From Coniochaeta sp. PMI_546 (taxonomy: Eukaryota; Ascomycota; Sordariomycetes; Coniochaetales; Coniochaetaceae), in NCBI GenBank assembly GCA_021432605.1, contig MU271154.1, positions 372,001 to 436,000 on the forward strand: a stretch of 64,000 nt of DNA, given 5' to 3'. Shown piece by piece: positions 46,735 to 59,681 of this stretch. The notes below the pieces were generated by a model that saw only the letters and a list, made by a program, of their open reading frames with translations, was not told where the DNA came from and searched no databases. Position 1 is the stretch's first letter, and the number at the start of each line of letters is the position of its first letter. The position numbers were made by a program, and so were the translations under genes.

Positions 46735-48293
46735 ATGTCTCTATGTCTTCTCTCTGCGTTGCTTCTCATGTCACTCGTTCAGGCCAAAGTGCAGTTCTTG
46801 GTGAGTTCAACGTCCCTTAGTGCATCACACTAAATGACTAACATCAGAAGGGTGTCGCCATTGCCGGTGGAGACTTTGGATGTCAAATAGACGTCAGTTT
46901 CAGCTTGCCGACGAATGTCCTGCTTCACGCACGACAACTGACGTCCTTGTAGGGATCATGTCCTACGGGCTCCACGCAATTACCTCTGAACAACTTGGGC
47001 GGAGGGGACGGAGCTGGTCAAATGAAGCATTTTGTTAAAGACGACCAGGTGAATATGTTCAGGATTCGTACGAACTTTCTACTTCTACAACCGCATCATC
47101 TATGTACTGATGTTCTGCTAGCTATCTCTTGGCAATTTCTTACCAACAACAAGCTAGGAGCCAGCGTGGATGGCAACAATCTCGGCAAGTACGACCAGGT
47201 CATGCAAGCCTGTCTCTCCACGGGAGCGTACTGCATGGTGGATATCCACAACTTTGCTCGCTGGAATGGTGGTATCATCGGTCAAGGAGGGCCGACGGAT
47301 GATCAGTTCGTCGGACTATGGACGCAACTTGCAACTAAGTATGCGGGCAATGCTAAGGTGGTCTTCGAGCTGATGAACGAACCTCATGACCTCGATATCA
47401 ACGTCTGGGCTCAGACATGCCAGAAGGTCGTAAATGCCATTCGCAACGCCGGTGCAACGACCCAGATGATCCTTCTTCCGGGAACCAACTTCGATAGTGC
47501 GGCAACGCTTGTTTCCAGTGGCAGCGCGGAGGCTCTGCTGGCAATCACAAACCCTGACGGGACCACCGATGGCCTCTTGCTTGACGTCCACAAATATCTT
47601 GACGTCGACAACTCCGGTACACATGCAGAGTGTGTGACGGACAACACCGCAGCGTTCGCAACCGTGGCAGATTTTCTCCGCCAGAAAGGTCGACAGGCAA
47701 TCGTCAGTGAGACAGGAGCATCGAGTGCCGTATCATGCATGACTGCTTTCTGTGCCCAGAACGCCTTCATCAACGCTAATTCGGACGTGTTCATCGGGCT
47801 CGTGGCCTGGGCGGCCGGAAGCTTCAGCACATCATACCTTCTAAGCTTGACGCCTAGCAAGCAAGGGTCGGGTCTGGTAGATAATTCCTTGGCGGCGCAG
47901 TGTGTGGTACGGACCTGGGTGCAAGCGAGTGACGTTGCTGCGCTTCCTCCTTCCTCGGCAGCAACTGTGACAACCAGTGCAAGTCTTAGCGCTGGATCTT
48001 CTAGCGATCAAACAACGGTGGTGAAAACTGGAACGTCTATTACGGTCATCACCACGTCAGGGACGGAAACACCAAGAGTGCAATCGACTTTGACGCCAAC
48101 TTCCGGATCTGCGATCGTGTCCTCGTTCACCGGTGTCTCAACTGGCAGACTAACGTCATTGCCGGGCACCACTGCTTTGTCCGGAAGCAGCTCTGGATCT
48201 GCAACCTCGCAGCCTGTGGCTGGAAATCCGGCCTCGGCGCTGACCATACCACTGAGGGCATTCTTTATTTGCGTGATAGCGTTAGCAGTCTGA
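46735..48293 (+). CDS. GH5 endoglucanase, GPI-type
   Basis: Four exons (46735-46800, 46848-46892, 46953-47067, 47122-48293) give 465 residues. A signal peptide (LCLLSALLLMSLVQA) is followed by the GH5 barrel: VAIAGGDFGCQIDGSCPTGS, NMFRIPISWQFLTNN (restored across the third intron), YCMVDIHNFARWNGGIIGQG, VVFELMNEPHDLD with acid/base Glu162, LLLDVHKYLDVDNSGTHAEC and AIVSETGAS with nucleophile Glu272. A Ser/Thr-rich stalk (residues about 390-445) and a hydrophobic end (LRAFFICVIALAV) indicate a GPI anchor. Family knowledge predicts hydrolysis of beta-1,4-glucan at the cell surface. The three short introns lie in the first 400 bases, as in many GH5 genes. Confidence 0.92.
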
Positions 48294-48670: not shown

Positions 48671-49545
48671 TTATTTCTTACTCGATAACTTGCCCTTGCC
48701 CCTTGCTACTTCGTTGAAGTCCATCACGGAAGTGGCGGGGGGGCGAGGTACGTCCTGCGTTTGTTGGGTACGCCATGGTGCCTTCAGATCCCTTGTACGC
48801 ACAGGAGTTTCTCGTTGGGATCCGTGAGGCAAGCATCCGCCGGTGGCAGTGCCTTGCCGGCCACGAGAAGCATATTGAAACTCCCGTCGTCTTGTCCTCT
48901 GGCTCGCGTCGCCCCACATGAGCGTTTGTTTAGGCCGCTTATTACCGCCCATTGTCCACAGTTCACTACTGACAGGTTTGTACCCTTCATGGACAATTTT
49001 CCTGTCTTGCGGGGTGGCGATGGCCACTGGAGTACCTCGGTCAGCGATCACGTAGATGTGGCCCTGCACCTGGCAGTGTTCGATGTCCTGGCCCATGAAG
49101 ATCGTCAAGTGAGGATCAGCTGGTAACGTACGCGGAGTATCAGTCTCATTGTCGCGTATCGTTACCGTGTTATGGCATGGCGCCCTTTGTCAAATATTAA
49201 TCTCGGTTCCTTTAGAACAAATGACTCTGAACAGTGATATGGAACATACCTGAGAACTATGCAGGGAAATCCACCATATTCCTTCGCCTTGGCTCTGAGG
49301 ATAACATGGTGAGCCTCCCTCCATTCCTCGTCCTCGCCTACTATGCAAGTCCAGTAAATCTGCGAGCTGGTTAGCTAAACTTTCCAGCGGTTCGACAACA
49401 TGAGGGCAGAAGTACGCACGACAGGATCCTCGACGGTGCCCTTGCCAAAGGTCTGTTCCCATTGGTTAGGGCACCTCTTCCCATCTCCCAGAGGATCGCC
49501 CGGTCGATATTCTGTGGAAGGCGGTAAGTTGTTGTCTCTCGTCAT
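48671..49545 (-). CDS. Small unknown protein A of the duplicated kinase module
   Basis: Exons 49545-49420 (42 codons), 49359-49250 (110 nt) and 49184-48671 give 249 residues. The N-terminus contains TEYRPGDPLGDG and GTVEDPV. The middle holds IYWTCIVG, HHVILRAKAKEYGGFPCIVL, HNTVTI, ADPHLTIFMGQDIEHCQVQG and HIYVIADRG, then SELWTMGG. The tail is basic (WGDASQRTRRREFQYAS). No signal peptide or membrane segment is seen. It is paralogous to protein B at 52751-53572, with identical exon 1 and 2 lengths and the same intron phases, and it is divergently paired with the kinase at 50255. Two H-x-T motifs sit 21 residues apart in both copies. I know of no function; cooperation with the kinase is inferred from co-duplication. 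Confidence 0.75.
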
Positions 49546-50254
49546 GTTAATAGCTGACTAAAAATGTTGGCTATGTAGTCTCAACTGAGCCGGGTCATGC
49601 TCCATGTGGACGACACCACAATTTATGTCTGACTTCAGACGGGGATACATCTGGTGAAGCACGACGGAACTTCTTTGAGATGAAAATGTCTTTCACTCGG
49701 AGTATCATGTAGTGATTCATGGCTTTTCGATATGAGAATTATATGAGACATTCAAGACAGATTGCTTGTAGGTTAGTGAAGGACACTGAGCAAAGAGCAT
49801 ACTATACAATGGGTTTTTTTGACTGAATGAGACTAAAAACCTATTAAAATCACATTCTGCTGGGAAAAGGGTATGCACTCAAAGATATTCACCAGACTCT
49901 TGTCAAGTACGAACAAAGGAAGTAGACAAATCTTCTAAAGCAGGCACTTCCCAGCTTCCTAAGACAAAAAGGGTGAATGAGTACTGTTAGACACCCAGAC
50001 TTCTTTGTGAATCCTTAGAGTCGTACTTGCCTTTTTATTCGTGGTTCCGTGTCACGTTCCCTTTACTTCACTTGATAACGCTGTGCTAGCAAACATTCTG
50101 CCCACCTGACTGTTCGGTGCCCATTTAAGAGTGGCCACTCCCCTCTCCACTACCAATTTGACTTCAGTCCCGGTTCTCAAAACCACCCAAGCCAAGCCGA
50201 AAGTCGAAAGCCGAAAGCATAGCACACAAGCGGCATTTACGCGACACAAGCACG
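49546..50254. promoter_or_regulatory. Divergent intergenic region of module copy 1
   Basis: About 710 bases between the divergent start codons of protein A and kinase A, rich in A and T around 49740-49870. A shared regulatory region is plausible from orientation. No specific site was recognised. Confidence 0.4.
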
Positions 50255-52027
50255 ATGTCACAACCTCCATCCTCCGAAACCGCAATGGCAACCTCAAATG
50301 CTGATGGATCCGCAGACAGAGGAGTACAATCCTCGCCTCAGCATGCAGATCAAAAGACTTCAAATTCCCAAGACTCAGCACAAGAAGAATACCACAGCTA
50401 CGGATACCTACCGATGATATGGGACCACGAGGATCTCGACCAGTACAGCTACGGTGGCCTGCACCCGATAATCATTGGCGATACTCTCGGGGACGACAGC
50501 AGGTACAAGGTCTATCGCAAGCTCGGGGCCGGTGGATCCGCCACCATCTGGCTCTGCCGGGATCAAGTGGACAACAAATGGGTAGCTGTCAAGGTTCTAG
50601 GCGCGAAGGCATCTTTTGATGCCGCTCAGTGCCAGATCGGCGAGATGGCAGTTCTGAAGCACTTCAGAGACCTCGAAGTGGACGATTGCGAGTTAGCAGC
50701 AAATCATGTTTGTCTGCCAGATGACTACTTCGTTCAGCGGGGTCCCAACGGTGATCATTTCTGCTTTATTCTTCCAGTCCTCGGTGGCGACGTTCGTTGG
50801 GCTTGGGTCGACTACGGCTATAAACCAGAGGTCTTACGGGAGATATGTGCACAGATGGTCAAGGCCATGAGCTATCTCCACAGCAAGCGAGTCTGCCACG
50901 GCGACTTCCGGCCTTCCAATATCATGTACACCCATAGCGGCATCGAGAACGCGACACAAGATGAGATCGACGACATGTTCCCCGAAAGCGAAGAAGTTGA
51001 ACTCGGGCCCATTCCTGCAACAGGAGAGGAACCAGGGCCGGCTCTACCGAGATTCATCTACTCGTCCACATGTTTAAGACGACAACCCGAGCAAAGTAAT
51101 GTTAGCGTTGTGGTCAGCGACTTCGGCGAAGCCTACATCCTCGGCAATTCCCCAGAAAACCTCGGTATACCGCTCAGATACGCTGCGCCTGAGGTTCTTC
51201 TCAACCCTTATTTGGGATTCAACTTTGCGACGGACGTCTGGTCCCTCGGGGCATCTATCTTGGAAATCCGACACAATCAGCAGTTCGTTATCGACTTAAG
51301 CTTGTTCGATGCTGTGAGATCCATGGAAGAAAATCTCGGACCGCTTCCAGAGCCGTATCGGGCTGTGTGGTTCTCACTTGACCCCGTATATCGACGGTTT
51401 GCTGGGGACGAAGCAGAGATTCCTTCGACTGAGCCTGTTACCATGTCTTCTGAAAGATTGGTCGGCAAGAAGGAGTCCATTCTGGGTGCCAAATATGCCA
51501 GCTTTTTGGAGAGAGATGTTAGAGAGCTTAGGGGACTAGGCCTCAGGATGGAGCCGGGAGAGGATCTTAGCAAGAAGCCAGGTCAGCGTCTAGCCCGCGA
51601 TGGCATCTGCAAGTGGATCGAGTACCAGATTCCGGCGGAAGAGGCTGATCAGCTTCTTGACCTGCTCTTGGGTATTTTCAAGTACGAGCCTGAAGATAGA
51701 CTGTCTGTACAGGATATCATGGACCACCCTTGGTTCTCCGGCCGATTCCTCGGCGCTGATGACAGAGACAACGATCCGGAAACGGAGGTAGAGAACAAGG
51801 TCCGTGAGGTCATCAACGAGGTTGGAGATGAGGAAACTGCTTCAGAGGTGGGGATCAAAGGCAATACAGATGAGCTGCGAGAGGATGAGAATGAGGTGTT
51901 CTTTGACGCTGTGGGTGTTGCAGCAGTCGTCGTTCCTGCCCGAGGTATTGCACATATCCTCGCTCAGTTTCGGGGATTTGTCCTTGCAGTGGTGTGGAGG
52001 CTGCGGCGGGCATGTTTTGGAGCATGA
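50255..52027 (+). CDS. SRPK-like protein kinase A of the duplicated module
   Basis: Intronless, 590 residues. After a disordered start, the SRPK-like entry DLDQYSYGGLHPIIIGDTLG leads into the glycine loop LGAGGSATIWLC, VAVKVLG (Lys113), the catalytic loop CHGDFRPSNIM (Asp217), VSDFGEAYI (Asp289) and YAAPEVLL. An insert of about 55 residues between the catalytic loop and DFG (ENATQDEIDDMFPESEEV, then GPIPATGEEPGPALPRF) is shared with kinase B. The HxD-loop lysine is Arg. The C-lobe ends in DHPWFSGRF, then an acidic region and a hydrophobic basic tail (GFVLAVVWRLRRACFGA) that could contact membrane. The key catalytic residues suggest an active Ser/Thr kinase. Substrate unknown; divergent neighbour is protein A. 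Confidence 0.88.
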   Translation: MSQPPSSETAMATSNADGSADRGVQSSPQHADQKTSNSQDSAQEEYHSYGYLPMIWDHEDLDQYSYGGLHPIIIGDTLGDDSRYKVYRKLGAGGSATIWLCRDQVDNKWVAVKVLGAKASFDAAQCQIGEMAVLKHFRDLEVDDCELAANHVCLPDDYFVQRGPNGDHFCFILPVLGGDVRWAWVDYGYKPEVLREICAQMVKAMSYLHSKRVCHGDFRPSNIMYTHSGIENATQDEIDDMFPESEEVELGPIPATGEEPGPALPRFIYSSTCLRRQPEQSNVSVVVSDFGEAYILGNSPENLGIPLRYAAPEVLLNPYLGFNFATDVWSLGASILEIRHNQQFVIDLSLFDAVRSMEENLGPLPEPYRAVWFSLDPVYRRFAGDEAEIPSTEPVTMSSERLVGKKESILGAKYASFLERDVRELRGLGLRMEPGEDLSKKPGQRLARDGICKWIEYQIPAEEADQLLDLLLGIFKYEPEDRLSVQDIMDHPWFSGRFLGADDRDNDPETEVENKVREVINEVGDEETASEVGIKGNTDELREDENEVFFDAVGVAAVVVPARGIAHILAQFRGFVLAVVWRLRRACFGA

Positions 52028-52750
52028 GCCAAGTAGAGGTGTGAGTTTGCATAGACTAGAATGATGGATAGTTCAGGCACTTGTCCCCAGCACATAGTGG
52101 TTAGATCTCAATCTCAAGGACACCTTGCCCTGAACCTACTGGCTCAGCCATGATGCAACGCCAGCGTCTCTGAATACATGTACCCAGCACTACGGCAAGT
52201 AAGTATCTTTTGTGCAACCTCGACCAGACTCGCCGCGCGCCAAGAGTCTACAGAATCGCCTCACCGGCGGTGCCATCTTGACGGAGTCGATCAATAGTTC
52301 GACGAGGCCCTTACAGCCAAGATAGATCACACATTGCTTAGGCTATGTATAGAATGCCGAAGAATTGAGAAGGTTGAACTAAGGTATTCAGGAGAGAGGA
52401 ACCCTTGCGTTTTCAATTGCCACATCAGTAAACTGTGAACCATAAGTTTAGCGACAGACAACTTCACAAAGCCTCGAGGAGTGCGTGAGAAAAGGAAGAG
52501 AAAGAAAGAGATAATATCAAATATTCGCTCCAAAGTACGTTACGTTGACATGGTAATAATCCGCAACATGATAGGTCTAGATTATGCAAATAATTCCAAC
52601 CTCGTAGGCCCAAATAACAATTCCCGTCCTTCTGGGTGTCAATACAATAAGGCAGATAATTAGTCCTTTTCACAAACCGGCTTTCATAATTGCTGAGTTG
52701 CTGTGACATGCACATAGTTGCTGGCCGCTCTTAATGGCAAATCATCTCTT
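52028..52750. other. Intergenic region between module copies
   Basis: About 720 bases between the 3' ends of kinase A and small protein B, which converge here. This is the expected junction of the tandem duplication; no repeat long enough to mark the breakpoint was noticed by eye. Confidence 0.4.
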
Positions 52751-53572
52751 CTAGGGGGACTCGTTGAGCGGCTCAAGAACTTTGGTCCCCTTGCTCCTCC
52801 AGTTTCCCTGCATCTGATGACTCTTCTGCGTGTGTAGTGTTGATGGAAGGTAGGCAGATGTGAATACACCTCTCCTCTGTTTAGTTCGTTCACCTGCATC
52901 TTTCCACTGGGGCCCAAATGCGGATTGTGGTCGGTTCCTCAGGCTGCTAGTAGACGCTCCTCCGTGCCCGATCATGTCCCACAACTCCACGTCTGTAGGC
53001 TCAGATCCGTTGCGAACGATGACTCGATCATTGGCTGTTGCAGCTCGGATGTTACCTTCGCTGGTGACCAGAAATATATGTCCCTGAAGATAACAGTTCT
53101 TCAAATCCTTTCCCATGTAGACCGTCATGTGAGGGTCAGCAGGCTGAAGCTCTGCCTTGCCAGTATTACGGTTCGTCACCATGAAGGTGTTATGTGAGTC
53201 CTTTCTATGACAGCAAGTTAGCCTCCTAGCTCGCACAGACAAACAAGATGGCGTTATATCAACCTAATAATGACGCAAGGAAAGCCGTATGCGATGGCCT
53301 TTTGTCTTGCAATGCTGTTGTGCGCTTCGATATACGACGGAACCATCTGTCTAGTGTCGCATGCCCAGTATATCTGCATATCAGTCAGTGAAATTGCGAT
53401 CAAGTATAGCATATAGTATAGCAATGAAACCATTGTTAGCACGCACTGAGGGATCTTCCAATGTGCCACTTCCGCTGCCGCTCAGGGGCACGACAGGGGT
53501 CACTTGACCTGGACCGAGCGGGTCACCAGGACGGTATCGCGACTGTGCTCGTGTGTTTTTGTTAGTACTCAT
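52751..53572 (-). CDS. Small unknown protein B of the duplicated kinase module
   Basis: Exons 53572-53447 (42 codons), 53373-53264 (110 nt) and 53204-52751 give 229 residues. It matches protein A along its length: SRYRPGDPLGPG, GTLEDPS, IYWACDT, an AHNSIARQKAIAYGFPCVII block, HNTFMV, ADPHMTVYMGKDLKNCYLQG, HIFLVTSEG, VELWDMIG and a basic tail with WKDAGERTKQRRG. Exon 1 and exon 2 lengths equal those of protein A, and the intron phases agree. The second intron has donor GTTGAT, weaker than in copy A. No domain is recognised. Divergent neighbour is kinase B at 54564. Confidence 0.73.
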
Positions 53573-54563
53573 GGCAATTAAAGCGCTGTTATATCATGGA
53601 AATGGAAGCAAATGTCTCTGGCGGGCTGGACGGGTCGCCTTCGTATGATCATGCGACGAGGATGAGCCACTTTGGAGCCCATCCGGCATCAAGATACACA
53701 GCTATGGACATATATATGTATGATTTATTCTGTTATGGTGCTTGCGATGAAAACCATACCGAGTATCCAGACTCGATCACGATGTCCTTGTGTGTCAACT
53801 ATTTATAGGACAAGGGGATAAAGATGAAAGGTCTCCCCAGATTCCAGGGTGTTCAACAAGAATCGATATGGCCGTTATACTCGTATCGACACTCAAACAA
53901 GTCAGCAGAGGGAATCCATAAGACCAAGTCAGTCATTGTGAATGACTTCATTGTTGCTGCCATAGCCCTAAAGAAACCCCAGCGATATTGGTGAAGTCGT
54001 TTTGCGAACCGCGGCGGTTCGTAGTGATTCTTGTCTACCACTGCGTGTCTAAACTTAGGACTCATTGACCTAGCAGTAACACTTTGACATAGAAATTCAA
54101 AAGTGAATGCTGAATATTTCTTTGTCCTTCTTCCCGTGTAGTCAGGTCCAAAGTAGGCAGGGTTCATGTGCGGGGAGAACAAACTGGATCCATTTTGCTT
54201 TGTTCCTCATCTTTGTGAGTTATAATTATATACAGTTCTGTTTGGCCCATCTTAGATTCACTCTAGATGGATGAGTTTTCACCCACCTGCGGCAGACAAA
54301 GAAGAAAATCTGCTGGTCGGATGCTTCATACTTAAATCGTTGCACAAGTTAAAGACGGCTTCAGTTTCGACAACCATAAATCATCCAGTCGTACACAAGT
54401 TGGAACTTCTTTCACTTGTACATAGGTCGTCCATCTCCACGAGGCAAAACCCAGAACCTGGACAACCAAAAAGCACACAGCCCCGTGGACAGGTATTAAA
54501 CAAGTCAAGAGCGCTACGAACGGACAGATTGCAACCCCGGATCGGCCGACAATCTTGGCTACG
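53573..54563. promoter_or_regulatory. Divergent intergenic region of module copy 2
   Basis: About 990 bases between the divergent start codons of protein B and kinase B. Frames within it are short and unsupported. It is nearly 300 bases longer than the equivalent region of copy 1. Confidence 0.4.
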
Positions 54564-56387
54564 ATGTCAAGCCTCAATAGTGACGATTGCGACTTCATAC
54601 TACCTGGCGCTTCTGAGACGCAAGTTGATAGTTATGGATACGATACACTCTTCTATGAAGGCATCGAGGATCTCGACCAATACCGCCCTGGCGGCCTGCA
54701 TCCCATTCTGCTCGGGGACACTTTAGGTGAAGGCAGATTTCAAGTCGTCAACAAGCTTGGGTCCGGAGGCTTTGCCACCGTCTGGCTTTGTGCCGACCTT
54801 GAGGAGCAGCGATACGTCGCCATCAAAGTCTTGGGCGCCAAGGCATCGACCGAGGCGACAAATGGCGAGACAGGCGAAATTGCAATCCTGAAGCACTTCA
54901 AAAACACGAGCAATGGCGAACTGTCTGCGAACCACATCTGCTTGGCTGAGGACTATTTTGTCGAAACGGGTCCTAATGGGCAGCACATCTGTCTCATTCT
55001 CCCAGTATTAGGACGGAACATAAAGAATATCTGCTATCAATACGGCGATGATCCTGGGGTCTTGAAGGATATATGCGCGCAGATGGTCACGGCCATGAAA
55101 TATTTGCACGAGCACGGTGTCTGTCATGGCGACTTCCGCTCTGCAAACATACTTGTCAAAATCCCTGGCTTCGAAAACGCAACCGACGAGGAGGTCTCTG
55201 AGATGTTCCCAGGTTGCTACCAATTCGAAGTCGGGCCAATCCCAGCAACTGGTGCAGACCCAGGCCCTCACCTTCCCAGATTTGTCTACACGTCTGCAGA
55301 ATTTGAGCCTCTCCAGGGCCAATCCCTGACAGAGATTGTCGTGAGCGACTTTGGCGAGGCATATCTCGTGGACAGACCTCCAGCATTGCTTGGTATCCCG
55401 CTTGCCTATGCTGCGCCCGAGGTTTTTGTTGGTAAGGACTTTGGATTCGGCTTCCCCACAGATGTCTGGTCTCTAGGAGCGACGATATGTGAGGTACGGC
55501 AAGGGTCGACAAGCTTCAACGACGGGTCTGTTCTTGAAGCTGTCCAGCATTTGGAGAAGGAGCTAGGCCCATTGCCGGAGCCGTACAGGTCTGTTTGGAA
55601 TGAGAACGGTTTTGAGCGCCTGGGCAACCTTCCCCCGGCCTCCCAGATCCCTTTGACCGAACCTGTGTCGTGGAATAAAGATGTTTATGATGAGTCTAGG
55701 CGAGAGTGGCTCCAACATTGCGGTCATACCACTGTGCTGGAAAAAATAGTACGAACCAAATACGGCTTCGGCCATCTGCTTGAGGATGGGGAAGAGGTTA
55801 AGTCGAATCAGCGAGTTGTCCCTGGTGGTTGGGTTTGGACAGACTTCCAAATTCCGCCAGATGAGGCTGATCAGTTGTTGGATCTCCTGTCGAGGATCTT
55901 CAAGTACTCGCCCGACGAACGCTTAACGATTCTAGAAATCATCAACCACCCATGGTTCTCCGACGACCTCTCCCGTCCCGACATGGTGGACACGAAGGGA
56001 GACGAGATTATGGACAACGTGCTTGTTGATGCTGATGGACTCCTCACCAAGGACGTTGGTCAAGGTCCTCATGTACACGTTGCCGACCGTGCCACAGACC
56101 AGAAGCCGAAAGGTGTGAATGTTTGCGATGTCCAGCGTGAGGATAAGGCGGACGTCCAGAACGTCAAAGGTTCAGCCAAGACTGACTTTAAAAAAGAGGA
56201 AGACACGATCACGGATGCTGCACTTCGGTCGCCCCTGGTCGATGCTGAAGCTGAAGATGGCAATGAGCGGTGGCATGATGCTGAAGATATTCCGGCGCCC
56301 CCCGTGCCAGCGGGGTGGATCGTCCGTATCTGCAAGCGCTTATGGGCATTGCTCTTTCTAGCTATATGGAGGGTAGGAAGAGGATGA
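54564..56387 (+). CDS. SRPK-like protein kinase B of the duplicated module
   Basis: Intronless, 607 residues. Motifs in order: DLDQYRPGGLHPILLGDTLG, glycine loop LGSGGFATVWLC, VAIKVLG (Lys88), CHGDFRSANIL (Asp190), the shared insert (ENATDEEVSEMFPG, GPIPATGADPGPHLPRF), VSDFGEAYLV (Asp262), YAAPEVFV and NHPWFSDDL. A long acidic tail (residues about 480-580) precedes a hydrophobic, basic end (WIVRICKRLWALLFLAIWRV) that looks like a membrane-contact helix. Similarity to kinase A is high through the kinase domain (by eye about 60% around the glycine loop) but low in both tails. Retained catalytic residues suggest activity. Together with protein B it repeats the arrangement of copy 1. Confidence 0.88.
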   Translation: MSSLNSDDCDFILPGASETQVDSYGYDTLFYEGIEDLDQYRPGGLHPILLGDTLGEGRFQVVNKLGSGGFATVWLCADLEEQRYVAIKVLGAKASTEATNGETGEIAILKHFKNTSNGELSANHICLAEDYFVETGPNGQHICLILPVLGRNIKNICYQYGDDPGVLKDICAQMVTAMKYLHEHGVCHGDFRSANILVKIPGFENATDEEVSEMFPGCYQFEVGPIPATGADPGPHLPRFVYTSAEFEPLQGQSLTEIVVSDFGEAYLVDRPPALLGIPLAYAAPEVFVGKDFGFGFPTDVWSLGATICEVRQGSTSFNDGSVLEAVQHLEKELGPLPEPYRSVWNENGFERLGNLPPASQIPLTEPVSWNKDVYDESRREWLQHCGHTTVLEKIVRTKYGFGHLLEDGEEVKSNQRVVPGGWVWTDFQIPPDEADQLLDLLSRIFKYSPDERLTILEIINHPWFSDDLSRPDMVDTKGDEIMDNVLVDADGLLTKDVGQGPHVHVADRATDQKPKGVNVCDVQREDKADVQNVKGSAKTDFKKEEDTITDAALRSPLVDAEAEDGNERWHDAEDIPAPPVPAGWIVRICKRLWALLFLAIWRVGRG

Positions 56388-57451
56388 TTTGGAGCATTAT
56401 TGAGAAGACATGTTTAGAAGATTGTATTGTGTATGTCCGCGAAGTGGAAGTCGCTATCAGCGTTTATCACAAAGACGTCCAGACTGGCTTCAGACCACGA
56501 TGGAAAGATGTCAGCTTGAAGTATCCAATTTGATCTCACCTTCCTTTCGAGTAACATTATCTCCACCAATAGCTAGCACGGATATCCCACCGATACCGGC
56601 AATCGGCTGTGTCCATGAGTGTGTAAGGAACTCCCGAGTGTAGGAAACAATATGACCAGACATCAGTACAACAGGACCCAGGCTAGCACTGATGTACCAT
56701 GATCTCAGTCATTCAGACAGTTCTATTCTGCCAACTCAATCCTTAATCCCTTCAAGCGCTCGAGAGGCGCAAATAGAGGTTGCCGGTGCACTACATCGGT
56801 CGAAAATGACAAGGCTTTGATGCATGAGAGACAGGAGTAAGTCGTCGTCAGATCCGCGTATCTGATCAAATTGGATGAGTAAGATAGACTCCTTAGGTTG
56901 CGCGAGACGAAGATATAGTCTATTACACTGTCAGGTACGATATGGTTTGCAGAACGCGAGGGGTTGTCGTCGTGCCGAAGCGACGTAGCAGTGAGCCAAG
57001 GAGGAGTGGTTACCCCTCCCCTCCGCGGCATGGTGAGGCTGAGGGGCTGTAACGAGGCTCGTGCACGCTAAGAGTTTGCCGCTAGTTGCATCACGTGGAG
57101 GCTACTGCACGGTTTCTTCTCCACCTGCCGACCCCACACAGACAATCTTGCCTGAACCTTAGAGGGACGACCAACGTCAACTTTCCTCCGAAGAACAGAA
57201 GGGCTCCTCATTGCGTCTCCTCTGTCATTATCGATAATTTGCGCCAATTGCATCACTTTCAAGAGCTTCAAGCGTCTGCAGACGCATCTTACTGTGACAC
57301 AAGGCTCTATAAGTTCTAGCTATGCACGCACACGCGACATGATCTCCTCACTCACCGCTGGCCCAATCCGGAGACCTCGTTCCTGCCCTGGTGTTTGTCA
57401 TGTGAGCAGTGCGCCGGTACCAAGGAGCCCAGAGACAAATACCGGGATCCG
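56388..57451. other. Intergenic region
   Basis: About 1.1 kb. A minus-strand frame at 57031-56723 contains VPDSVIDYIFVSRNLRSL, which resembles a short stretch of an endonuclease/phosphatase-like fold but has no partner exon. A TATA-like CTATAAGTT at 57306-57314 precedes the JmjC gene by about 140 bases. Confidence 0.4.
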
Positions 57452-59681
57452 ATGAAGTCCAGGAGGAAGAAGCCGAGCGCGTCTGTCGAGCAATGGGACC
57501 GCCTTCTCGCCGTAACCTCATCAAGGCTTGAAGTAAACAAGATGGCCGGAGTACCGCCTGCCGGAACCCCAAGGGGGGTTATTGCTCGACAAGGACCCAG
57601 CCAAACAGACTTGGGGATCGCGCAAATACTTGCTAGCATTGCTTCTTCTGTTACCCGTTCTGTTCAGCCTGCCAATGGCCCTCCATCTGCTCAAGCAAAC
57701 GGCATCTTGGGCATGAGTGCCATCGCCCAGCAACAAAAAGTGCCACTTCATCATAGTGGAAGTGGACCGCAACCTCTCTCTTCCCAACCTCATCATCTCT
57801 TTCAAACCGGGCCCATGAAGCAAGAGGATCGGCTTGGTCCTGGCTCAATGGCAGTGAGCACCGCCCCACCTTCCAACCTCGGAAACCAGTCGCAACTTAC
57901 CCTGCAGCCCTTACTGAATGGCCTTCCCAATCTTCCATCCCCTCCATTGGCAAATGGTCACTTGTTCTCCCCGCCTCCTCCAAGATGCTGTCCCAGAGAG
58001 GTCCCGGAGATACTCTTGCAGATGCTGGATCACGAATCAACGCCCCTTCTCGAGCATCTGCGACTGTTCTTCCCTTTCCAGCGCAAGATGTGTCATGATC
58101 ATCTGCAGAAGTTTGTTCAGACCTCGCTGATCTTTCTGCTCGAGAAAGAGGCTACACGCACGACACTCCCCTTGATCTACAACCCGATAATACCAGCCGC
58201 CTCAACAGCGCCTCCTGTGGGTGTTCCTAAGGACGTGCTATCGGCGGCAGCGAACGAAGAGCCTCCCGCAAAAAGGCAGCGTATCGACGGATCGGGCTGC
58301 GACTCTCCCTATTACGACTGTGTCGTTGCTGGTTCACAGCAAACCCACGGCGTCACAACTGATCACAGCCCGGTGCTTGAGCGCGTGCCGACTCCTGGCC
58401 CTACCTCGATTATCGGCGGCGCCCCGACGATCGACCACGCCTCACAACTTGACCATGCTCCGAAGCTTGACGTCGCGCGTGATGAGGCATTTCGTCGTCA
58501 AGTGATGCAGGAATTGCATGGAAAGCCCGGTCTAGAGAAGGGCAAGACGCACGGGGACGTCACCGCTAGGCTCATCCTAAAACTTCTCCAGGTTTGTGAA
58601 TCCCCGGACACAAGTGAGGCACTTCTCTTGTCTGGACAAGAAGCCGCTGCGAGGATGGAGGCAGGGGTTACGGACTGCCCAATCTTCACTGATGGCCAGC
58701 AGCAGTTCAGTTGGGCTCCCGACAGCCGGCCTATTGAGGAGATCTTCCGCCGCATGGAGAACCTTAACCGGAACGTCTCTGTGCAGGTTCCGTCACGGAA
58801 ATACCACCTACGGTCCTTCGAAAAACATAAACTTCTTGAGGTCCAACAGCGCTTCCTAGAGGCGGAAAATGCCGACACTGACGACCCGTGGAATATTCTC
58901 GATCTCCGCAATCCTTTGCCTCCGACCGTCATGCCCAAGTTCTTGGCTGCGGAGAACTGCCAGCTGCTGTCCCGCGTCCGAGATGCTGTGCTCAGCGGGA
59001 GCAGTGGCGAGCGAACAGTTGCGGCAAAGGAGAAATGGAATGAATGGCTTGACGTCATGGACTGGGTTCTGCTCTCAGAGGGTGGCCACCACACTGCACC
59101 TCACATGGACAGCCACGGACTCTCGACCTGGATTACCATACAGGAAGGGGAGTTCGGGTTCGGTTGGCTGTCGAAGCCGACCAAGGAAGAGCGGGATGCA
59201 TGGGTCGCCAACCCGCAAGAGTTCACGGGCGGAAGATGGAGATTCACTGTCCTTACCCCCGGAAAGACCGTTTTCTTCAACTCAGGCACGATCCACTTCG
59301 TCTTCAGATTACGCCATGGTCAGACACTGGCTTTGGGAGGTCATATTCTGCAATGGTCCGGCATTGAGCGGTGGATTACTGTTGTTCGGGACCAGATGCG
59401 CAGCCCGCAGATTACGAATGAGGATGTGGAGTGGAGCGCACCCAAGTACGTGCGAGTGGTTTCCGATCTCGTGACAAACAGGGTCAAGAGTGGGCGGGTT
59501 GATGAGATTGGCGGACAGCAAGTGGTAGACCGTTTTCTCGCATTAGTCCAGGTATGCTTCCTCTCCCGATGCTGGTCTACTGGCAGCTAACGATTTCTAG
59601 GAGTTCGAAAAGGATATGAAGGATATCAAGAAGGAGGCTATGAAGGAGGCTAAGCCGCCAGCGAAGAAGAGGAAACGCTGA
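57452..59681 (+). CDS. JmjC-domain protein
   Basis: Exons 57452-59551 and 59601-59681 give 726 residues from the first ATG. The frame stays open upstream to about 57319 and includes CLSCEQCAGTKEPRDKY, so an additional 5' exon with a Cys pair cannot be excluded. Residues 1-330 are low-complexity (Pro/Ser/Gln) around one helical block (VPEILLQMLDHESTPLLEHL). The C-terminal half carries the jelly-roll core: HHTAPHMDSHGLSTWITIQE (His551, Asp553 as iron ligands), FGFGWLSKPT, FTVLTPGKTVFFNSGTIHFV (distal His615) and LALGGHILQW. The family uses iron and 2-oxoglutarate, often on histones; the substrate here is unknown. The lysine-rich end (KEAKPPAKKRKR) is a likely nuclear localisation signal. Confidence 0.82.

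What the first reader, a model, noticed from the sequence alone, without database searches (positions are those of the whole stretch)
48671..56387. Tandemly duplicated divergent module: unknown small protein plus SRPK-like kinase
Two copies of the same two-gene arrangement lie side by side: a minus-strand gene for an unknown 229-249 residue protein facing a plus-strand SRPK-like kinase. Both small genes have a 126-nt exon 1, a 110-nt exon 2 and the same phases, and both kinases share a specific insert. Pairing kept through duplication suggests a functional unit such as kinase and regulator or substrate. I know of no described system of this kind; that is a statement about my knowledge, not a database result.
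Basis: partly seen in the sequence, partly recalled or inferred. Interest (0 to 1): 0.75.

Follow-up and report, generated by a model that had tools for sequence, protein, structure and literature searches.

The report
Duplicated pair: kinase and orphan protein
In this fungus an uncharacterised small protein gene and a protein kinase gene sit back to back, the pair was duplicated long ago, and some relatives seem to keep the two genes on the same stretch of DNA, which suggests but does not prove that they work together.

Summary
Two modules lie in direct tandem, each a minus-strand three-exon gene (249 and 229 aa; exons 126 and 110 nt; intron phases 0 and 2) facing an intronless plus-strand kinase (590 and 607 aa). 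The small proteins are homologous (E 4e-47) and match no Pfam family at E <= 1. The kinases belong to the known fungal SRPK-like (SRPKL) expansion and keep their catalytic residues. Clear small-gene matches occur only at these two places in the 33.5-Mb genome. Elsewhere six relatives on five contigs were found; three of the five have the same length as contigs carrying an A-clade kinase. Both families split into A and B before several species diverged. The 'specific insert' is family-wide (29 of 34 kinases). Verdict: an old, apparently conserved divergent gene pair of Coniochaeta-like fungi: known kinase family, orphan partner. A substrate or regulator link is plausible but unproven: tails are not RS-enriched, distances in other genomes could not be read, and both structure predictions failed.

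The parts
48671..49545 (-). small protein A (249 aa), exons 49545-49420, 49359-49250, 49184-48671
   Evidence: splice model; homologous to small B (E 4e-47) and to database proteins P0001-P0006
49546..50254 (.). 709-base region between the divergent starts of small A and kinase A
   Evidence: lengths; no significant motif shared with the B counterpart
50255..52027 (+). kinase A (590 aa), SRPK-like, catalytic residues kept, acidic linker, C-terminus CFGA
52751..53572 (-). small protein B (229 aa), exons 53572-53447, 53373-53264, 53204-52751
   Evidence: splice model; P0002 is 139/142 identical to it
53573..54563 (.). 991-base region between the divergent starts of small B and kinase B
54564..56387 (+). 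kinase B (607 aa), SRPK-like, catalytic residues kept; stop codon stands where kinase A has the Cys of CFGA

Best explanation
This is a vertically inherited divergent gene pair of Coniochaeta-like fungi: an apparently active SRPK-like (CMGC/SRPKL) kinase with an acidic linker and a C-terminal hydrophobic stretch, plus a lineage-restricted partner with a conserved core and a basic, quickly changing tail. One old tandem duplication copied the whole pair, giving A and B versions that then diverged. Most likely mechanism (inferred): the small protein is the kinase's dedicated partner. Its basic tail (conserved W-x-D-[AV], R-T-basic and W-R spots) docks on or is phosphorylated by the kinase, its core recognises or does something else, the kinase may be held near a membrane by its C-terminus, and the shared upstream region keeps the two genes co-expressed. 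Shown: gene structures, homology, catalytic residues, linkage in this genome, shared contig length in three other cases, an old A/B split. Inferred: interaction, substrate relation, membrane site, co-expression.
For: Both small genes of this genome face an SRPK-like kinase and no other clear small gene exists there. Exact contig-length matches: 10,255 (P0002, P0003, kinase P0009), 24,570 (P0004, kinase P0016), 2,829,473 (P0001, kinases P0011 and P0025); two or more such coincidences in none of 200,000 jittered draws. The matched A-type small proteins go with A-clade kinases. Kinase linkers are acidic in 9 of 10 A/B-group kinases and small-protein tails basic, pI 10.4-12.0, in 7 of 7. [quoted passage not shown]
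Against: Two of five external contigs (P0005, P0006) show no listed kinase, and 5 of 8 A/B-side kinases elsewhere have no small protein on record. The third match is a 2.8-Mb scaffold, so it says little about distance. RS/SR and RT/TR dipeptides are not enriched in the tails (P 0.27-0.97 in 7 of 7). Hydropathy of the C-terminus is modest (kA 1.8, kB 1.6; P0009 1.4, P0015 1.0, P0011 0.9). No shared promoter motif. Structure predictions failed, so no interaction could be modelled.
Confidence: 0.4

Rival explanations
1. Linkage inertia: an unrelated neighbour was carried along in one tandem duplication and has not yet been separated within a narrow lineage. The two proteins do not work together.
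For: The confirmed linkages are few and all in a narrow group. Lasiosphaeria has the core domain with no listed kinase of this group and no tail. Five of 8 A/B-side kinases elsewhere lack a recorded small gene.
Against: The A/B split is old (sites at fourfold-degenerate positions 20% and 38% identical against 25% and 26% expected at saturation), yet the pairing is intact in both copies. Third-exon-only gene calls in the lgn and jgi sources make absence weak evidence.
Confidence: 0.3
2. Co-expression only: the genes share a bidirectional upstream region and act in the same programme, but the small protein is an independent enzyme or binding protein, not the kinase's partner.
For: Head-to-head starts 709 and 991 bases apart; invariant D, H, T, C, Q, G, H residues in the core of 8 of 8 aligned relatives look like a functional site.
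Against: No shared motif was found in the two upstream regions; no expression data here; no enzyme family matched.
Confidence: 0.18
3. Recognition or conflict locus: the A module carries strongly diverged alleles kept by balancing selection, the tail of the small protein and the kinase forming a matched recognition pair.
For: On the 10,255-base contig the B partner is 139/142 identical to this genome's, but the A partner only 102/159 and kinase A 429/537; the A tail (41%) is as far away as that of C. ligniaria (43%).
Against: One contig, known only by its proteins and its length; species of that sample unknown. Gene conversion of B, a constrained B gene, a different A paralogue or a chimeric contig would look alike. 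No known fungal recognition domain was matched in the four proteins.
Confidence: 0.1

Closest known systems
Fungal SRPK-like kinases (CMGC/SRPKL of Kinannote; the SRPK expansion SrpkB-SrpkG of Aspergillus nidulans)
   Same: SRPK-type kinase domain closest to Sky1 (kinase B) and SRPK2/SRPK1 (kinase A); non-RD HxD; long insert before DFG as in 29 of 34 relatives. Passages read in PMC6001611 and PMC3591445 describe the expansion and call its function little known or not understood.
   Different: In the passages read no dedicated, divergently transcribed partner gene is mentioned; this subclade adds a conserved C-terminal stretch (EVFYDA-like in 8 of 34, CFGA in 4 of 34).
SR protein kinases Sky1, SRPK1, SRPK2
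   Same: Sequence similarity over the kinase domain (E 5e-34 for kinase B against Sky1; E 2e-26 for kinase A against SRPK2).
   Different: HGD instead of HTD; the partner's tail is not RS-rich; the RS-docking groove was not tested.
Linked fungal recognition gene pairs such as het-S/nwd2 (PMC3321046, listing only) and het-B (PMC10890737, listing only)
   Same: Two neighbouring fungal genes thought to act together; possible strong allelic divergence at one side.
   Different: No Pfam match to any recognition or cell-death domain in the four proteins; polymorphism within one species not shown.

Membership tests
SRPK-like (SRPKL) kinases | Kinase domain closest to SRPK/Sky1 | tested here: met
   best solved chains are Sky1 and SRPK2/SRPK1
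SRPK-like (SRPKL) kinases | Insert of about 62-69 residues between the catalytic loop and DFG | tested here: met
   66 residues in both kinases; 29 of 34 relatives within 62-69
SRPK-like (SRPKL) kinases | Catalytic Lys, Asp, Asn, DFG, APE present | tested here: met
   Alignment
Canonical SR protein kinase | Phosphorylates RS dipeptides; acidic docking groove | not testable with these tools
   No assay; groove residues not compared
SR-type substrate (small protein) | RS/SR-enriched tail | tested here: not met
   Not enriched against shuffles in 7 of 7 tails
Known protein family (small protein) | Match to a Pfam, NCBIfam or PDB family | tested here: not met
   best E 0.16, one member; best E 0.87; none. 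PHROGs and PADLOC were not searched.
2H phosphoesterase fold (considered) | Two H-x-[ST] motifs | tested here: not met
   One HxT is invariant in 8 of 8 rows; the second is lost in P0006. Motif recalled, not from a call.
Fungal recognition (het-type) locus | Strongly diverged alleles within one species | tested here: inconclusive
   One contig, species unknown
Conserved divergent gene pair | Head-to-head neighbours in several genomes | tested here: inconclusive
   Shared contig length in 3 of 5 contigs; distance and orientation not readable

The most novel reading that the evidence does not exclude
The A module is a polymorphic recognition or conflict locus: an SRPK-like kinase and a cognate partner whose tail diversifies under balancing selection, while the neighbouring B copy stays nearly identical. 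That would be an undescribed kinase-based self-recognition (or killer/protector) pair in Sordariomycetes.
Probability: 0.08. Interest if true: 0.8.

Novelty: new variant of a known kind. Interest (0 to 1): 0.4.

Why it matters
SRPK-like kinases are multiplied in filamentous ascomycetes, and the kinome papers whose passages were read call their function little known or not understood (PMC6001611; PMC3591445). A genetically linked, dedicated partner would give a direct handle on what one subfamily does, testable by simple deletions and pull-downs in a Coniochaeta.

Tried and rejected
Insert as evidence for the pairing: rejected, it is family-wide (29 of 34). Small protein as RS-type substrate: dipeptides not enriched (7 of 7 tails). 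A third small-gene copy at C11:267275 (E 0.034; E 0.002 in the small script search): rejected, because the frame holds stops and the aligned stretch lacks the invariant D-x-H-x-T and Q-G-H residues. A weak C2:2859043 match (E 0.42) was not followed. Small genes beside other SRPK-like loci of this genome: seven of the eight other loci were fetched with 9.9-kb surroundings (C2:2195208 was not); tblastn with six queries gave nothing convincing (one E 0.66 match at L038). More copies in the window: none beyond the two modules. Relatives in viral contigs and prokaryote genomes: pattern matches, none confirmed. A wider protein search with eight members added no new member. Structure of the small protein: two predictions, mean pLDDT 42.2 and 38.6, too poor, so no fold search was run. 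Shared upstream motif: best match 11 bases, E 0.13. 2H phosphoesterase idea: second motif not conserved. Papers: no hit for the two named locus tags or for Coniochaeta with SRPK; the listed titles and abstract starts show nothing on this pair (33, 39, 61 and 73 list only the best 20 of 490, 15 of 114, 10 of 3,101 and 10 of 34).
Full report
Observation. The window lies in a 33.5-Mb, 24-contig assembly at C12:372001-436000. Splicing was rebuilt from the sequence. Both small genes have exons of 126 and 110 nt, then a long third exon, intron phases 0 and 2, and GT-AG introns of 59-73 nt. The kinases are single open frames. The layout is [small A minus, kinase A plus][small B minus, kinase B plus], a direct tandem. 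Small A/B are 35% identical (E 4e-47), the kinases 42% (E 8e-154). In a blastn comparison only two kinase stretches still align (834 bp at 65%, 127 bp at 70%).

Kinases. Pfam gives Pkinase for both. The closest solved chains are Sky1 for kinase B and SRPK2 and SRPK1 for kinase A. The ATP-site Lys, the Asp of HGD, the Asn, DFG and APE are present in both, so they should be active. HGD stands where SRPK2 has HTD; both are non-RD (term recalled). After the last kinase motif comes a linker of net charge -9 (kA) and -10 (kB); it is negative in 9 of the 10 kinases kA, kB and P0009-P0016, the exception being P0016 (+5), whose end looks different. The C-terminal stretch is hydrophobic: the best 17-residue mean is 1.8 for kA and 1.6 for kB; among ten relatives scanned, P0012, P0018, P0021 and P0028 reach 2.2-2.6 but P0009, P0015 and P0011 only 1.4, 1.0 and 0.9. 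Membrane association is therefore suggestive at best. kA, P0009, P0011 and P0012 end in CFGA (4 of 34). In kB the TGA stop stands at the codon that is Cys in kA, and TTT GGA GCA follows it, as in kA. Lipid attachment at that Cys would be a guess.

Small proteins. Neither has a Pfam match at E <= 1. Across the eight aligned members the best Pfam E is 0.16, in one member; NCBIfam gives none; the best PDB E is 0.87. The protein search found six relatives: P0001 of Coniochaeta ligniaria (Coniochaetales), P0002-P0004 (source lgn), P0005 (source jgi) and P0006 of Lasiosphaeria hispida (Sordariales). A wider search with all eight sequences added nothing. P0002-P0005 are third-exon pieces from unspliced gene calls (alignment), so absence in such sources is weak evidence. 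Fifteen columns are invariant in 8 of 8 rows, among them D102, H104, T106, C116, Q119, G120 and H121. The part after ELW is basic (pI 10.4-12.0 in 7 of 7) and changes fast: 23-43% identity in the 20 pairs left after setting aside P0006 and the near-identical sB/P0002, against 34-86% for the core.

Is the pairing real? In this genome, searches with sA, sB, P0005 and P0006 find only these two small genes with convincing scores. The kinase B query finds ten loci at E <= 1e-6, these two and eight others; seven of those eight were fetched with 9.9-kb surroundings and none shows a small gene. In the protein database the kinase search listed 34 proteins at E <= 1e-30, two of them the window's own; only the 7,993 candidates sharing most words were scored. 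Matching contig lengths: 10,255 bases for P0002, P0003 and kinase P0009; 24,570 for P0004 and kinase P0016; 2,829,473 for P0001 and kinases P0011 and P0025. So three of five external contigs with a small gene also carry a kinase of this family; the contigs of P0005 (9,835) and P0006 (6,086,892) show none. That the contigs are the same is inferred from equal length and equal source. In 200,000 draws in which the five lengths were jittered by about 30%, one coincidence occurred in 0.2% and two or more never. The third match is on a 2.8-Mb scaffold and says little about distance. Of the four length-matched kinases three are in the A clade, which has 6 of the 32 external kinases if the 11 not put in the tree lie outside it (hypergeometric P 0.015).

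Age of the duplication. A kinase tree of 23 rows (the window pair and 21 of the 32 others) puts kA, P0009, P0010, P0011, P0014, P0015 and P0016 in one clade (100/99) and kB with P0013 (99/99). In the small-protein tree of eight rows sB, P0002 and P0005 form a clade (99/98); the order among the A-type rows is unresolved, and the program warns of long branches for P0005 and P0006. The A-type small proteins P0003, P0004 and P0001 share contig lengths with the A-clade kinases P0009, P0016 and P0011. Fourfold sites are 20% identical against 25% expected at saturation for sA/sB (41 sites) and 38% against 26% for kA/kB (118 sites).

Results against. Coniochaeta sp. 2T2.1 has two A-clade kinases (P0010, P0014) but no small-protein hit; P0012, P0013 and P0015 have none either, that is 5 of 8 A/B-side kinases from other sources. 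The Lasiosphaeria protein has the core without the tail, and no Lasiosphaeria kinase is listed. RS-type dipeptides are not enriched. The two upstream regions share no significant motif. Both structure predictions failed.

An unexplained lead. On the 10,255-base contig the B partner is 139/142 identical to sB, tail included, while the A partner is 102/159 identical to sA and kinase A 429/537 to kA. The tail of sA is as far from this contig's (41%) as from that of C. ligniaria (43%). Diverged A alleles kept by balancing selection would explain this; so would gene conversion of B, a constrained B gene, a different A paralogue or a chimeric contig. The contig's DNA could not be reached here.

Organism. 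The window's species was not identified; 'Coniochaeta-like' is inferred from the nearest named relatives.

Literature. Passages of PMC6001611, PMC3591445 and PMC5307856 describe the SRPK/SRPKL expansion and call its function or pathways little known, not understood or poorly understood; PMC6001611 also reports that removing one F. graminearum SRPKL kinase halved toxin production. [quoted passage not shown] Nine paper searches listed no paper on this pair by title or abstract start; four of them list only the best of many hits.

Verdict. Real, old and apparently conserved; a known kinase family with an orphan partner; the mechanism is inferred. Interest 0.4.

Noticed in passing
contig of 10,255 bases (P0002, P0003, P0009): B partner 98% identical to this genome's, A partner 64% and kinase A 80% on what looks like one contig: very uneven divergence.
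   Followed up: partly
window 56385-56396: The stop codon of kinase B stands where kinase A has the Cys of its C-terminal CFGA; the FGA codons follow the stop.
   Followed up: partly
P0014, Coniochaeta sp. 2T2.1: A second A-clade kinase copy has HGG in place of HGD and a shorter insert (49 residues): possibly a pseudokinase or a faulty gene model.
   Followed up: no
P0012, P0018, P0021, P0028 C-termini: Several SRPK-like kinases end in clearly hydrophobic stretches (best 17-residue mean 2.2-2.6), as if anchored in membranes by their tails.
   Followed up: no
window 46953-48293 (+): Cellulase (glycosyl hydrolase family 5) reading frame next to the module (E 3.6e-49).
   Followed up: no
window 57320-59590 (+): Open frame of 756 codons downstream of kinase B without a Pfam match at E <= 0.001.
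   Followed up: no
G000:C5:62598-63125 (L024, L035): A separate SRPK-type gene with HTDLKPEN, probably the genome's ordinary SR protein kinase.
   Followed up: no
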